Shown piece by piece: positions 30,665 through 35,430 of a DNA stretch of 64,000 nt; position 1 is the first letter of the stretch; the number at the start of each line of letters is the position of its first letter. Location: assembly GCA_947259375.1 (NCBI GenBank), contig CAMYLZ010000025.1, positions 186,001-250,000 of the forward strand. Direction: 5' to 3'. Under the pieces are notes generated by a model. It did no database searches and was not told where the DNA came from. It worked only from the letters and a program-made list of their open reading frames with translations. The stretch comes from an uncultured Parvularculaceae bacterium. GTDB taxonomy: Bacteria; Pseudomonadota; Alphaproteobacteria; Caulobacterales; Parvularculaceae. Both the position numbers and the translations under genes were made by a program.

Positions 30665-31585
30665 ATGGAACATGATCCACGCCTTGATCTCAATGACTAT
30701 CTTTATTTTGCGCATGTGGTGGACCATGGCGGCTTCGCTTCGGCTGGTCGGGCGCTGGGGATCCCGAAATCCCGGCTGAGCCGCCATGTCCAGCAGCTCG
30801 AAGACCGGCTCGATGCGCGCCTGTTGCAACGAACGTCGCGGCGGTTTGCCGTCACGGACGCCGGGGCGGCGTTTTACCGGCATGCAAAAGCGGTCATGGA
30901 CGAGATGCAGGCTGCGGAAACCGCGATGTCGAGCCTGCGCCGCGAATTGACCGGAACGATCCGCCTGTCCTGCTCCCTGGGGCTCGCGCAATCAGCGCTG
31001 AGCGCGTTGTTGGCCGGTTTTTTGAAAAAACATCCCGGCGTCAATATCAGCCAGCTTGTCACCAATGAACTGGTGGATCTGGTCGGCGCCGGCGTTGATG
31101 TGGCGATCCGCGGACATGTGGAAAACCTGCCGGATTCGAGCCTCATTCAGCGCCGGCTTGTCCGGGTGGAATGGGGGTTATTCGCCTCGCCGCGCTATCT
31201 TGAAGATCATGGCGAGCCTGCCGCGCCCGGCCGGTTGGCCGGCCATGCGGGCCTGGCCCTTGGCTGGAATGCGGCGATTGGCGAATGGCGCCTCGAAAGC
31301 CAAAGCGGCGAGGCCGGAATTGTCCAGTTCGCGCCAAGGCTTTGCAGCGATGACATGGCGACGTTGAAAGGCGCCGCCGCATCGGGGCTGGGCGTCGTCT
31401 CGCTGCCCGCCTATGTCTGCCGGTGCGACGTCGAAAGCGGGCGTCTCGTCCGGGTTCTTCCCGGCTGGACGTCGGGCAAGGCGACGCTTAGCCTCATCAC
31501 GCCCAGTCGCAAAGGCGCGCCGGCGGCGGTTAAGGCGTTTACGGACTATCTTTGTGAAGAACTGCCGAAAGCCCTGTCGCCGTGA
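30665..31585 (+). CDS. LysR-family transcriptional regulator
   Basis: A 306-residue LTTR. The winged HTH is at about 10-65: LDLNDYLYFAHVVDHGGFAS, AGRALGIPKSRLSRHVQQLE and RLLQRTSRRFAVTDAG. The effector domain runs from residue 95. It belongs to the group with DLNDLxxFxxVVxxGGF starts, often divergent from pirin or quinone-responsive genes. Probable target: the adjacent pirin gene. The stop falls in a 12-bp tandem duplication (31577-31600), which may have arisen by slippage. Confidence 0.9.
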   Translation: MEHDPRLDLNDYLYFAHVVDHGGFASAGRALGIPKSRLSRHVQQLEDRLDARLLQRTSRRFAVTDAGAAFYRHAKAVMDEMQAAETAMSSLRRELTGTIRLSCSLGLAQSALSALLAGFLKKHPGVNISQLVTNELVDLVGAGVDVAIRGHVENLPDSSLIQRRLVRVEWGLFASPRYLEDHGEPAAPGRLAGHAGLALGWNAAIGEWRLESQSGEAGIVQFAPRLCSDDMATLKGAAASGLGVVSLPAYVCRCDVESGRLVRVLPGWTSGKATLSLITPSRKGAPAAVKAFTDYLCEELPKALSP

Positions 31586-31600
31586 TGGTCGCCGTGATGG
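31577..31600. repeat. 12-bp tandem duplication at the 3' end of the LysR gene
   Basis: TCGCCGTGATGG occurs twice in direct succession. The first copy contains the gene's TGA, so the duplication does not alter the protein. It is a small slippage scar. Confidence 0.7.
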
Positions 31601-31695
31601 TTGCAATTGGGTGGTCGGGGCGGGGTGCGTTTCGCTGGCGCGGCGTAAGTCCCGCCGATGGACAAATCCGGGCGCCTCGCCTTCCAAAAAATCCC

Positions 31696-31737
31696 TCGAC
31701 ATGAGAACAAAAAGGGAATATAGAACAAACAGCGAAC
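31696..31737 (+). promoter_or_regulatory. SOS-type promoter: -35/-10 boxes with LexA operator GAAC-N7-GAAC
   Basis: TCGACA (31696-31701) and TATAGA (31719-31724) are separated by exactly 17 bp and resemble sigma-70-type -35/-10 boxes. GAAC (31723-31726) and GAAC (31734-31737) are 7 bp apart, the exact alphaproteobacterial LexA box GAAC-N7-GAAC. The operator overlaps the -10 box and the predicted transcription start, where LexA would block polymerase. A third GAAC occurs at 31705. The downstream gene is a 31-residue membrane peptide. The match is read directly from sequence; LexA binding is inferred. Confidence 0.72.
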
Positions 31738-31769
31738 TTTATCGCAGCCAGTCAGTCAGGAGGGGCCTT

Positions 31770-31865
31770 ATGGAAAACGAAAGCTTGCGCGACATCGTCG
31801 GACTCGGCGTATTGCTCTGTGTTATCGGCGCGGCGCAATTCTGGGGCGCGCTTTTGGGGGCGTGA
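31770..31865 (+). CDS. 31-residue single-span membrane peptide, putative SOS-induced (SidA-like)
   Basis: The peptide begins MENESLRDIVGLGVLLCVIG and ends AAQFWGALLGA. A charged N-terminus (1-8) precedes one transmembrane helix (about 9-30) with Cys17 and Trp25. AGGAGG (31758-31763) lies 6 nt before the ATG, a very strong ribosome binding site. The LexA-type promoter ends 32 nt upstream. In Caulobacter the LexA-controlled 29-residue inner-membrane protein SidA halts division by binding the FtsW/FtsN machinery; size, topology and control are alike here, though no sequence comparison was possible. It lies upstream of dnaE, separated by a hairpin (31938-31956). Confidence 0.72.
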   Translation: MENESLRDIVGLGVLLCVIGAAQFWGALLGA

Positions 31866-31937
31866 GGCCCCACCGCTGATTTCCAGGCATGTCGAACGGC
31901 CCGGTTATTCCATGGCCTGGTAACGCTATGGTGGAGC

Positions 31938-31956
31938 CCGCCCGGCAGTCGGGCGG
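31938..31956 (+). terminator. GC-rich hairpin between the membrane peptide gene and dnaE
   Basis: A 7-bp perfect stem CCGCCCG / CGGGCGG with a 5-nt loop, then TTGTTA. The tail is only weakly T-rich, so it may be a partial terminator or attenuator separating the SOS-type unit from dnaE. Confidence 0.4.
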
Positions 31957-31980
31957 TTGTTACGGAAAGGCTCGATCACG

Positions 31981-34900
31981 GTGACGGCGCAATTTGTTCA
32001 TCTCCACCTTCATTCGGCCTATTCCCTCGCCGAGGGGGCGATCCGCATCGGCCAGTTGAAGGATTTGTGCCTCGCGGACGCCATGCCGGCGGTCGCCGTC
32101 ACCGACACCAACAACCTGTTTGGCGCGCTTGAAGCCTCCGAAACCTTGTCGGGGGCCGGCATCCAGCCGATTACCGGTTTGCAGCAATCGTTTGACGCCG
32201 GCGATTTCGGGCTGCCTTTGGCGCGCGGCGCGCGCCCGCCGGCGCTGGTGCTGCTCGCCCAGTCTGAGGCCGGTTACAAAAACCTTCTGAAAATCACCAG
32301 CCGGGCGTTTCTGGAATCGCGCTCTGACGATGTCGCCTGCGCCGGCCTCGACTGGCTCGAGGGGGCGAGCGACGGGCTGATCTGCCTCACTGGCGGGTTT
32401 GACGGGCCGATCGACCGCCTGCTGCGCGAGGGGCGGGGCGGCGAGGCGCGCGCCGCGCTTGAAAAGCTTGGCGCGCTGTTTCCGAACCGCCTTTATGTGG
32501 AGGTGCAGCGCCATGATGCGCGCGGCGCGGACAGCATCGAGGCTGAGCTGGTGGATCTTGCTTACGCGCTTGACCTGCCGCTGGTGGCGACGAATGAGCC
32601 GTTCTTTCCGTCAACGGATGATTACGAGGCCCATGACGCGCTGTTGTGCATTGCCGAGGGCGCTTATGTGCACCAGGACGATCGCCGCAAGGTTACGGCC
32701 GATCATTGCTTCAAGACCGCCGGGGAAATGGCGGCGCTGTTTGCGGATTTGCCCGAAGCGATCGACAACACGCTGGAAGTGGCGCGGCGCTGCGCCTTCC
32801 GGCCGCGCTTCCATCCGCCGATCCTGCCGAGTTTCGCCGAGTCGCCTGATGGCGACACCGCGACGGCGGAGGCGAGCGAGCTGGAACGCCAGGCCCGCGA
32901 AGGCCTCAAGGCGCGGCTTGCGGCGGCGCCGCCTTCCGCGCCCGAGGACGATTATTGGGACCGCCTCAAGATCGAGCTCGACATCATCAACCGCATGGGA
33001 TTTCCCGGCTACTTCCTGATCGTTTCGGATTTCATCAAATGGGCGAAGGCCGAGGGCGTGCCGGTGGGGCCGGGGCGCGGTTCGGGCGCCGGTTCGCTGG
33101 TCGCCTGGTCGCTGACCATCACCGATCTCGACCCGCTGCGCTTCGGTCTGCTGTTCGAACGGTTTCTCAACCCCGAACGCGTCTCCATGCCGGACTTCGA
33201 CATCGATTTCTGCCAGGACCGGCGCGACGAGGTGATCCGCTATGTGCAGGAGAAATACGGCCGCGATCGCGTGGCGCAGATCATCACCTTCGGAAAACTT
33301 CAGGCGCGCGCCGTTCTGCGCGATGTCGGCCGTGTGCTGAACATGCCCTTTGGCCAGGTCGACCGGATCTGCAAGCTGGTGCCGAACAACCCGGCCAATC
33401 CGGTGACGCTCGCCGAAGCGCTCGACACCGAACCGCGCCTGCGCGAGGAGCGCGACGGCGATGAGGCGGTCGCGGCGCTAATCGAAAAGGCGCTGAAGCT
33501 CGAAGGGCTGTACCGCCACGCCTCGACCCACGCCGCCGGCGTCGTCATCGGCGATCGCCCGCTGGACGAGCTGGTGCCGCTTTATCGCGATCCGCGTTCC
33601 GACATGCCGGCGACCCAGTTCAACATGAAATGGGTCGAGCCGGCTGGCCTCGTCAAATTCGACTTTCTCGGGCTGAAAACGCTGACGGTGATCGACCGCG
33701 CGGTCATGTTCATCAAACAGCGCGGCATCGATGTCGATATGAGCCAGGTTCCGCTCGACGACGCACCGACCTATGCGATGCTGGGCGAGGGCGCGGCGAC
33801 CGGCGTGTTCCAGCTTGAAAGTACGGGCATGCGCTCAACCCTGCGGGCGATGAAGCCGGACACGCTTGAGGACATTATCGCGCTGGTCTCGCTTTACCGT
33901 CCCGGCCCGATGGAGAACATCCCGACCTATATTGAGCGCAAGCAGGGCAAGCAGGAGCCGGACTATCTGCACCCGCTGCTCGAAGGCGTGCTGAAAGAAA
34001 CCTACGGCGTCATTATCTATCAGGAACAGGTGATGCAGATCGCGCAGATCCTGTCCGGTTACTCGCTCGGCGAGGCGGACCTGCTGCGCCGCGCCATGGG
34101 TAAGAAAAAGAAAGAGGAGATGGACCGGCAGCGCATCCGGTTCGTTGACGGCGCCAAGGAAAAAGGCGTCGATCCGCAAAAGGCCTCGTCGATTTTCGAC
34201 CTGGTGCAGAAATTCGCCGGCTACGGTTTCAACAAGTCGCACGCCGCCGCCTATGCCTATATCGCCTATCAGACCGGCTGGTTGAAAGCCAATTACGGGG
34301 CGGAGTTTCTGGCCGCGTCCATGTCGCTCGACCGGGCGAATACCGACAAGCTGGCGATTTTCCTCAAAGAAGCGCGCCGCACGGAGGTTGAGGTGCTGGC
34401 GCCGCATATCAATCATTCGCAGGCGGATTTTTCGGTCAAGGACGGCGCGATCATCTATGCATTGTCGGCGGTGAAAAATGTCGGCGAGGCGGCGATGGCG
34501 CATATCGCCGAAGAACGCGCGAAAAACGGTCCCTTCGCCGATCTTATGGACTTTGCAGAGCGCGTGGATCTGAAACTCGTCGGCAAGCGCTCGCTCGAAA
34601 ATCTCGCCCGCGCGGGCGCGCTGGACGGGCTTGGCGGGACGCGGGCGCAGGCCTTTGCCGCAGCGGAGCTGTTGATCCGCACATCCGCCGCCATCAATGA
34701 AGAGCGCAATAGCGCGCAAGCCGGCCTTTTTGCGCTCGACAGCGCGCCGGCGCTCGCCAAGCCGAAACTCCCCGTGGTTGAGGAATGGACGCCGCAGGCC
34801 CGGCTCGATGAGGAGCGCGCCGCTGTCGGTTTTTATTTCAGCGGCCATCCGCTCGATGATTATGACAAGGAGCTCAAGCGCCTCAATGTCGTCAGCCATG

Positions 34901-35430
34901 CCGATGCGCTGGTGCGGGCGAAATCGGGCCGCGCGGCGATTCAGATGGCGGGCGTTATTCGCGCTGTGCGCATGCGCCGGTCGAAAAGCGGCAAACCTTT
35001 CGCCTGGGTCGAGCTTTCCGATCAAAGCGGCGAGTTCGAGATCACCATGTTTTCCGAAACGCTGAACGCCTCGCGTGATTTTCTTGAATCCGGCGCCATG
35101 GTGCTGGCCGGGGTGACTGTGGAAGACCGGGATGGCGATGTGCGCTTCACCTGTGAGTCGCTGCGCGGGCTTGATGCCGCGGCGGCTGCGTCGGTCTCGC
35201 AATTGCGCGTGTCGGTGTCGTCGCAATCGGCGCTTGAGGGGCTGAAGCGCCGGCTCGGCTCGGTAAAGCCGGCGAGCGCGCGCGAGGCCGGGTCCGTGGT
35301 CGTCACCATGCGGTTGCCGGAAAGCGGCCGCGAGGTTGAGGTCGCCTTGCCGGGATCAGCCGCTTGCACGCCGGCGATGCGCGGCGCGCTCAAAAGCATC
35401 GACGGCGTCACCGATGTGGAGTTGATATAA
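31981..35430 (+). CDS. dnaE: DNA polymerase III subunit alpha
   Basis: The replicative polymerase, 1149 residues. The N-terminal PHP domain starts QFVHLHLHSAYSLAEGAIRI. The family C polymerase catalytic Asp pair is in MPDFDIDFCQDRRDEVIRYV (DxD), with palm-type VGPGRGSGAGSLVAWSLTIT before it. A HhH/OB region near the end (GVIRAVRMRRSKSGKPFAWV) binds DNA and ssDNA. The length and the beta-binding region fit replicative DnaE1 rather than the damage-inducible DnaE2. The GTG at 31981 gives the conserved start; a TTG at 31957 sits directly against a hairpin and is less likely. Confidence 0.96.
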   Translation: MTAQFVHLHLHSAYSLAEGAIRIGQLKDLCLADAMPAVAVTDTNNLFGALEASETLSGAGIQPITGLQQSFDAGDFGLPLARGARPPALVLLAQSEAGYKNLLKITSRAFLESRSDDVACAGLDWLEGASDGLICLTGGFDGPIDRLLREGRGGEARAALEKLGALFPNRLYVEVQRHDARGADSIEAELVDLAYALDLPLVATNEPFFPSTDDYEAHDALLCIAEGAYVHQDDRRKVTADHCFKTAGEMAALFADLPEAIDNTLEVARRCAFRPRFHPPILPSFAESPDGDTATAEASELERQAREGLKARLAAAPPSAPEDDYWDRLKIELDIINRMGFPGYFLIVSDFIKWAKAEGVPVGPGRGSGAGSLVAWSLTITDLDPLRFGLLFERFLNPERVSMPDFDIDFCQDRRDEVIRYVQEKYGRDRVAQIITFGKLQARAVLRDVGRVLNMPFGQVDRICKLVPNNPANPVTLAEALDTEPRLREERDGDEAVAALIEKALKLEGLYRHASTHAAGVVIGDRPLDELVPLYRDPRSDMPATQFNMKWVEPAGLVKFDFLGLKTLTVIDRAVMFIKQRGIDVDMSQVPLDDAPTYAMLGEGAATGVFQLESTGMRSTLRAMKPDTLEDIIALVSLYRPGPMENIPTYIERKQGKQEPDYLHPLLEGVLKETYGVIIYQEQVMQIAQILSGYSLGEADLLRRAMGKKKKEEMDRQRIRFVDGAKEKGVDPQKASSIFDLVQKFAGYGFNKSHAAAYAYIAYQTGWLKANYGAEFLAASMSLDRANTDKLAIFLKEARRTEVEVLAPHINHSQADFSVKDGAIIYALSAVKNVGEAAMAHIAEERAKNGPFADLMDFAERVDLKLVGKRSLENLARAGALDGLGGTRAQAFAAAELLIRTSAAINEERNSAQAGLFALDSAPALAKPKLPVVEEWTPQARLDEERAAVGFYFSGHPLDDYDKELKRLNVVSHADALVRAKSGRAAIQMAGVIRAVRMRRSKSGKPFAWVELSDQSGEFEITMFSETLNASRDFLESGAMVLAGVTVEDRDGDVRFTCESLRGLDAAAAASVSQLRVSVSSQSALEGLKRRLGSVKPASAREAGSVVVTMRLPESGREVEVALPGSAACTPAMRGALKSIDGVTDVELI

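What the first reader, a model, noticed from the sequence alone, without database searches (positions are those of the whole stretch)
31696..31865. LexA-type promoter driving a 31-residue membrane peptide beside dnaE: candidate SidA-like SOS division inhibitor
Seen: TCGACA-17 bp-TATAGA, an exact GAAC-N7-GAAC operator over the -10 box and start site, AGGAGG six nt before an ATG, and a 31-codon frame with a single membrane helix. Known: alphaproteobacterial LexA binds GAAC/GTTC-N7 repeats, and Caulobacter SidA is a 29-residue LexA-controlled membrane peptide that blocks division through FtsW. Inference: this is a DNA-damage-induced cell-division inhibitor, too short for routine gene callers and so probably unannotated in relatives.
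Basis: partly seen in the sequence, partly recalled or inferred. Interest (0 to 1): 0.78.

Follow-up and report, generated by a model that had tools for sequence, protein, structure and literature searches.

The report
SidA-like SOS peptide gene beside dnaE
Just before the gene for the main DNA polymerase lies a tiny gene, probably switched on by DNA damage, whose 31-residue membrane peptide appears to be a distant relative of the Caulobacter peptide SidA, which stops cells dividing until their DNA is repaired.

Summary
Window 31770-31865 encodes a 31-residue single-helix peptide under purifying selection (pN/pS 0.31), found in 47 of 62 genomes of its family. Its promoter carries two LexA-type boxes, not one: GAACAAAAAGGGAAT between -35 and -10, and GAACAAACAGCGAAC over the -10. 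Exact boxes also precede this genome's lexA, ssb/uvrA and chlI.

The box-peptide-dnaE arrangement recurs in 63 of 80 named loci. Among them is Caulobacter, where the peptide is SidA itself (NCBIfam NF033228, E 1.9e-16). The window branch is missed by that model (0 of 24) and shows no direct profile similarity to SidA; it is joined to SidA only through intermediates. In a survey of one genome per family, 10 of 80 dnaE upstream regions have TTGAC plus an exact box, against 0.005 expected, and 9 of the 10 are followed by a membrane peptide.

Best reading: a diverged SidA, one member of a class-wide family. Division inhibition is untested here. A GANTC-containing motif frozen inside the frame probably belongs to dnaE control.

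The parts
31696..31701 (+). -35 element TCGACA (TTGACA-like, same place in relatives)
   Evidence: 62 of 63 named loci with dnaE have a -35-like match in the 12 nt before box 1 (loose pattern); not called by the simple promoter scan
31705..31719 (+).
   Evidence: the tandem pattern drew 80 named loci
31719..31724 (+). -10 element TATAGA
31723..31737 (+). LexA-type box 2, GAACAAACAGCGAAC (exact GAAC-N7-GAAC)
   Evidence: an exact box lies within 700 nt upstream of dnaE in 26 of 29 family regions, window included
31758..31763 (+). Shine-Dalgarno AGGAGG
31770..31865 (+). 31-codon gene for a single-helix membrane peptide, SidA-like
31800..31811 (+). GGACTCGGCGTA, codons 11-14, frozen at synonymous sites, holding a GANTC (CcrM-type) site at 31801-31805; probably part of dnaE regulation
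   Evidence: changed in the one same-genus copy found away from dnaE
31981..35430 (+). dnaE, replicative DNA polymerase III alpha (start codon inferred)

Best explanation
This is a diverged SidA gene. LexA sits on two tandem boxes around the -10 element and keeps the promoter off. DNA damage makes RecA trigger LexA cleavage, and the 31-residue peptide is made. It inserts in the inner membrane as one helix and holds the late division complex (FtsW/FtsI/FtsN) inactive until repair is done and LexA returns. Shown here: the gene, its conservation as protein, the LexA-type promoter, the shared locus with SidA, and profile homology through intermediates. Inferred: LexA binding, induction, translation, membrane insertion and the FtsW target, carried over from Caulobacter SidA.
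For: Purifying selection on the frame. Exact boxes before lexA, ssb/uvrA and chlI in this genome. The tandem-box pattern finds box + membrane peptide + dnaE in 63 of 80 named loci, including Caulobacter loci whose peptide is SidA by NF033228 (Caulobacter vibrioides is the only one of 14 control genomes that rings). 72 of 75 Caulobacter-genus genomes have the peptide; dnaE lies 123-223 nt after its start in 28 of the 30 best. Published: sidA = CCNA_02004 (passage); 29 aa, acts on FtsW (passages); dnaE = CC1926 (table passage). hhalign: window group vs Robiginitomaculum group 80% (0 of 300 permutations as high), SidA vs Robiginitomaculum 84% (not permuted); window group vs class set 92%, SidA vs class set 95% (0 of 100 permutations each).
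Against: The window group compared directly with 13 Caulobacteraceae SidA peptides scores no better than permuted columns (57 of 150 and 85 of 150 reach it). Against the mixed A2 set it gives 40% probability, with 0 of 150 full but 3 of 150 helix-only permutations as high. No member of the window group matches NF033228 (0 of 24). In Caulobacter only 12 of 30 loci have an exact box and 10 of 30 show both boxes by my pattern, though 29 of 30 have at least one GAACN7GAA[CT]. Single-helix peptides are simple, so profile matches weigh less than for globular proteins. In genus g2 of the same family only 2 of 10 genomes have it. No functional data exist for this branch.
Confidence: 0.8

Rival explanations
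1. A LexA-controlled membrane peptide with another job, for example a membrane-depolarising SOS peptide of the TisB/DinQ kind rather than a divisome inhibitor.
For: Same size class and same SOS logic; no functional test; direct sequence similarity to SidA is at null level.
Against: Same locus, similar promoter and bridged profile homology with SidA. No antisense RNA or toxin hallmark was looked for.
Confidence: 0.12
2. A leader peptide: its translation or its transcript controls dnaE, and the conserved product is incidental.
For: It precedes dnaE in most genomes seen, with gaps of 4-116 nt in 12 sequences (window included) and no conserved terminator.
Against: The amino-acid sequence is under selection. 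A same-genus genome (G040, L025) keeps the peptide with both boxes and no dnaE in the 4 kb fetched; in Robiginitomaculum L124 the next gene is a convergent AA-kinase/decarboxylase fusion, and L095 has no dnaE in the DNA held. The window itself has a terminator-like hairpin with TTGTT in the gap, though the terminator scan did not call it.
Confidence: 0.05
3. Convergent analogue: an unrelated membrane peptide recruited to the same LexA promoter in this family.
For: Window group and SidA group do not match each other directly.
Against: Both match the same intermediates over most of their length, above nulls where nulls were run, at the same locus.
Confidence: 0.08
4. Chance open frame.
For: Short frame; exact boxes are common, 58 per genome.
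Against: Found in 24 of 28 same-genus genomes, own included; pN/pS 0.31 and fixed stop.
Confidence: 0.01

Closest known systems
SidA of Caulobacter crescentus (CCNA_02004; NCBIfam NF033228)
   Same: 29 vs 31 residues, one membrane helix, LexA-type box inside the -35/-10 spacer (a second box in 10 of 30 Caulobacter loci by my pattern), gene directly upstream of dnaE
   Different: Window group falls outside the NCBIfam model and has no direct profile match; N-terminus MENESLRD, helix pattern GLGVL
DidA of Caulobacter crescentus
   Same: Small single-helix damage-induced division inhibitor (passages)
   Different: 71 residues, SOS-independent (DriD), binds FtsN
YneA / SosA of Firmicutes
   Same: SOS-induced division inhibitors; YneA is a membrane protein reported to act on FtsW (titles and abstracts in the listing)
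   Different: No relation in sequence or locus was tested; comparison from listings and recall
SulA of Escherichia coli
   Same: SOS-induced division inhibitor
   Different: Acts on FtsZ (passage); not a membrane peptide (recall)

Membership tests
SidA (NF033228 equivalog) | Scores above the 35-bit cut-off of NF033228 | tested here: not met
   0 of 24 members of the window group match; none of the 50 matching genomes (279 searched) belongs to the window's family
SidA (wider family) | About 29-31 residues, single membrane helix | tested here: met
   31 aa; helix 2-30; membrane insertion inferred from hydrophobicity
SidA (wider family) | LexA box at the promoter | tested here: met
   Two boxes; exact boxes also before lexA, ssb/uvrA, chlI; no binding assay
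SidA (wider family) | Located directly upstream of dnaE, as in Caulobacter | tested here: met
SidA (wider family) | Sequence homology to SidA | tested here: inconclusive
   Direct: null level; through Robiginitomaculum and class-wide sets: above nulls where run
SidA (wider family) | RecA/LexA-dependent induction by DNA damage | not testable with these tools
   needs RNA data
SidA (wider family) | Blocks division through FtsW | not testable with these tools
   needs bench work
TisB/DinQ-type SOS peptides | Antisense RNA control and membrane depolarisation | not tested
   considered only; features recalled

The most novel reading that the evidence does not exclude
SidA is not a Caulobacter peculiarity. 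It is one tip of an ancient, class-wide alphaproteobacterial family of about 30-residue LexA-controlled division inhibitors, kept beside dnaE in families well outside its order and mostly beyond the reach of the NCBI SidA model. In this branch the inhibitor frame also houses a CcrM/GcrA-type methylation element of the dnaE promoter, so the checkpoint gene and replicative polymerase control are physically interlocked.
Probability: 0.6. Interest if true: 0.75.

Novelty: new variant of a known kind. Interest (0 to 1): 0.63.

Why it matters
If true, many alphaproteobacteria have an SOS division inhibitor in a predictable place, immediately upstream of dnaE, likely overlooked because it is about 30 codons long and too diverged for the NCBI model. 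A promoter-first search (TTGAC, LexA box, short frame, dnaE) finds it where a protein search failed. The family also offers natural variation for mapping how a bare helix shuts off FtsW/FtsI, and a way to test checkpoint evolution across a whole class.

Tried and rejected
Class-wide HMM search with the window group (385 genomes): 171 had some match at E up to 1; the three outside the family below E 0.01 lie in frames of 423-1306 aa, so none was taken as real. Direct profile match to SidA: null level. Scan of 31550-32100: no sigma-70-type promoter and no terminator called. Hairpins between peptide and dnaE: not conserved in 12 sequences, although the window and L024 have strong ones followed by T-rich stretches; RNA fold z-score -0.18. 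Pfam VUPS match of window-group peptides (best E 0.0014, 6 of 24; window peptide 17.1 bits against a cut-off of 27) taken as generic helix similarity. The original SidA paper is not held (by DOI; one search used a wrong id), so its sequence figure was not seen; the SidA identity rests on NF033228. Tandem-box hits with no peptide or dnaE (L082, L090, L108, L132 and others) were treated as other sites. The SRAP gene near an exact box (L336) was dropped as support, because the box lies beyond its 3' end.

Rows dropped and choices made by hand: from the class survey, L251 (unclear promoter) and L265 (peptide seen only by HMM) were left out of the 14-peptide class profile. Where several start codons were open I chose the one near the conserved start, in A1, A2 and the class set (there L202, L226, L231, L236 and L116). 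The 20 box sites fetched were picked of 58, mostly for A/T-rich spacers.

Full report
WHAT IS THERE. One thing was missed: a second box, GAACAAAAAGGGAAT, fills the spacer between -35 and -10, so the promoter reads TCGACA - box 1 - TATAGA/box 2. In relatives the same layout recurs, typically a TTGACA-like hexamer, then GAACAAAAAGGGAATATAGAACAAAAGACGAAC. The simple sigma-70 scan does not call this promoter. The gene downstream is the replicative dnaE; a second DnaE copy lies elsewhere in the genome.

IS IT A GENE. One-sequence tblastn found the peptide over 30-31 of 31 residues in all 9 other same-genus genomes sampled, at 77-93% identity, and in other genera of the family (41 genomes). A profile found it in 47 of 62 genomes of the family and 24 of 28 of the genus, own included (some of these genomes contributed to the profile). 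Of 33 regions fetched around hits, 28 contain DnaE. In 27 coding sequences a stop follows codon 31 every time. Over 26 distinct ones (three from other genera) pN/pS is 0.31, against 0.93 and 2.85 when the same alignment is read in the shifted frames. AlphaFold2 on the single sequence gives one helix, residues 2-30.

IS IT UNDER LEXA. The genome has one match to the LexA DNA-binding domain. I fetched 20 of the 58 exact box sites, picked mostly for A/T-rich spacers. Of the 21 boxes in them, 8 lie inside frames over 150 aa and look like chance. But one lies about 100 nt before the start of the LexA domain (L338; TTGAC is 9 nt upstream of it), one between ssb and uvrA (L349; TTGAC 5 nt upstream, close to the layout of the window), one upstream of the chlI domain (L335) and one before a radical-SAM frame (L334) (10 proteins scanned). 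An SRAP gene lies beside another box (L336), but the box is past its 3' end. chlI and uvrA are SOS genes in Caulobacter (PMC12700426, passages), whose LexA box is GTTCN7GTTC, the same motif on the other strand. So GAACN7GAAC is most likely the LexA box here; this is inference from promoters, not a binding assay.

WHAT ELSE HAS THIS PROMOTER. In 63 of 80, dnaE begins within 600 nt downstream on the same strand, and all 63 carry a 22-50 aa hydrophobic peptide in between; 62 of those 63 have a -35-like match. Of the other 17, L095 and L124 (Robiginitomaculum) have the peptide without dnaE in the DNA held. L126 (peptide present), L158 and L084 run out of DNA. L145 has a weak peptide and no -35. 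Eleven have neither peptide nor dnaE, among them Bacteroidales, Pedobacter, Limosilactobacillus and Beijerinckiaceae. The 63 include Caulobacter, Phenylobacterium, Brevundimonas, Robiginitomaculum, Parvularculaceae, Zhengella, Chelatococcus and a Sneathiellales MAG.

THE LINK TO SIDA. The Caulobacter peptide at this locus, 29 residues, matches NCBIfam NF033228 'cell division inhibitor SidA' at E 1.9e-16; 13 of 20 members of that alignment match. In a search of 279 genomes of the order, 50 match at E up to 0.01 and 33 pass the cut-off; all 33 are in family f2, which holds Caulobacter, and none of the 50 is in the window's family. Caulobacter vibrioides is the only one of 14 control genomes to ring. 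72 of 75 Caulobacter-genus genomes have the peptide. Of the 30 best, 28 have dnaE 123-223 nt after the peptide start; in the other two the contig ends 48 and 237 nt beyond the peptide. There, 29 of 30 have at least one GAACN7GAA[CT] within 140 nt upstream, but only 12 have an exact box and 10 show two, so the window's clean tandem is not universal. In print, sidA is CCNA_02004 (PMC11034885, passage), dnaE is CC1926 (PMC1839093, table passage), and SidA is a 29-residue inner-membrane protein acting on FtsW (PMC4211646, passages). No listing or passage that I saw states that sidA neighbours dnaE; it comes from the genomes here.

IS THE WINDOW PEPTIDE A MEMBER. By NCBI's model, no: 0 of 24. By direct profile comparison with 13 Caulobacteraceae SidA peptides, no signal (score 7.8, null mean 7.6). 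Against the mixed set A2 the signal is weak (40%; score 17.1, 0 of 150 full and 3 of 150 helix-only permutations as high). Through intermediates it is stronger: window group vs 5 Robiginitomaculum peptides 80%, score 22.3, 0 of 300 permutations as high; SidA vs the same 84%, not permuted. Against 14 peptides from other families, the window group scores 92% and SidA 95%, 0 of 100 permutations each. The commonest pattern is a basic-acidic pair (KD, RD, RE) at the start of the helix and a tryptophan further along; some members lack one or the other. I therefore say it works like SidA and is most likely homologous, but I do not file it under NF033228.

HOW WIDE. Independently of any peptide or box, dnaE was located in one genome per family across the class (123 genomes, 112 with a hit), and 80 upstream regions were fetched. 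TTGAC plus 3-7 nt plus an exact sense box occurs in 10 of 80, against a shuffle mean of 0.005 (maximum 1 in 200 shuffles). A 22-50 aa hydrophobic peptide follows in 9 of the 10, against 156 of 1975 random positions; the tenth, a genome of the window's own order, has one by HMM. Exact boxes alone are also above shuffle in both senses (11 sense against 0.9, 7 antisense against 0.6), so shuffles understate bare boxes; the TTGAC layout and the peptide are the telling parts. The A2 profile finds the peptide of G043 (family f6), which is the one seen upstream of dnaE in L226, at E 8.9e-5. So about one family in eight of this sample has the arrangement; the rest lack it, lost it or keep it elsewhere.

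A SECOND LAYER. Codons 11-14 of the window-type gene are frozen as GGA CTC GGC GTA: 25, 26, 24 and 24 of 26, although GGA is 3 of 88 glycine and GTA 1 of 76 valine codons in dnaE. They contain GACTC, a GANTC site of the kind CcrM methylates and GcrA reads (PMC7987155, passages). Between the LexA boxes and dnaE, 57 of 63 named loci hold at least one GANTC, against 23% expected (73 sites against 16.8; the loci are related, so these are not 63 independent events). In many Phenylobacterium loci it lies inside the frame; in Caulobacter L102, L103 and L150 it overlaps the peptide's stop codon; several Robiginitomaculum loci have none. G040, the one same-genus genome found with the peptide gene and both boxes but no dnaE in the fetched 4 kb, reads GGC CTC GGA GTG here: it accounts for the only exception at codon 11 and one of the two at codons 13 and 14. 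The simplest reading is that the motif serves a dnaE promoter inside or just after the sidA-like frame. It is one case and needs a test. The stand-alone copies (G040, L124) also argue against a mere leader peptide.

SUPPORT BY STEP. My estimates: gene real 0.98; LexA control 0.95; homologous to SidA 0.87; inhibits division 0.82; through FtsW/FtsI/FtsN 0.7. On checking against the calls I dropped SRAP as a box-preceded gene and corrected the genus g2 count to 2 of 10; neither changes these odds.

Noticed in passing
window 31800-31811: GGACTCGGCGTA inside the peptide frame is frozen at synonymous sites and contains a GANTC site; probable dnaE promoter element.
   Followed up: partly
L025 1514-1609 (G040:C33): Same-genus genome with the peptide and both LexA boxes but no dnaE in the fetched region, and with the frozen codons changed.
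   Followed up: partly
L124 4254-4430: Robiginitomaculum: tandem boxes and peptide next to a convergent AA-kinase/PLP-decarboxylase fusion gene instead of dnaE.
   Followed up: partly
L082, L090, L108, L132: Beijerinckiaceae (L082, L132), Methylocystis (L090) and an unnamed alphaproteobacterium (L108) carry the tandem LexA-like pattern without peptide or dnaE; what it controls is unknown.
   Followed up: no
L334-L353 (own genome): Putative LexA targets by exact box: lexA, ssb/uvrA, chlI and a radical-SAM protein (L334); in L336 a box lies between the 3' end of an SRAP gene and a frame without Pfam match.
   Followed up: partly
family genus g2: Only 2 of 10 genomes of this genus have the peptide by profile; Parvularcula dongshanensis L126 has a diverged form under tandem boxes, so some apparent losses may be divergence.
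   Followed up: no
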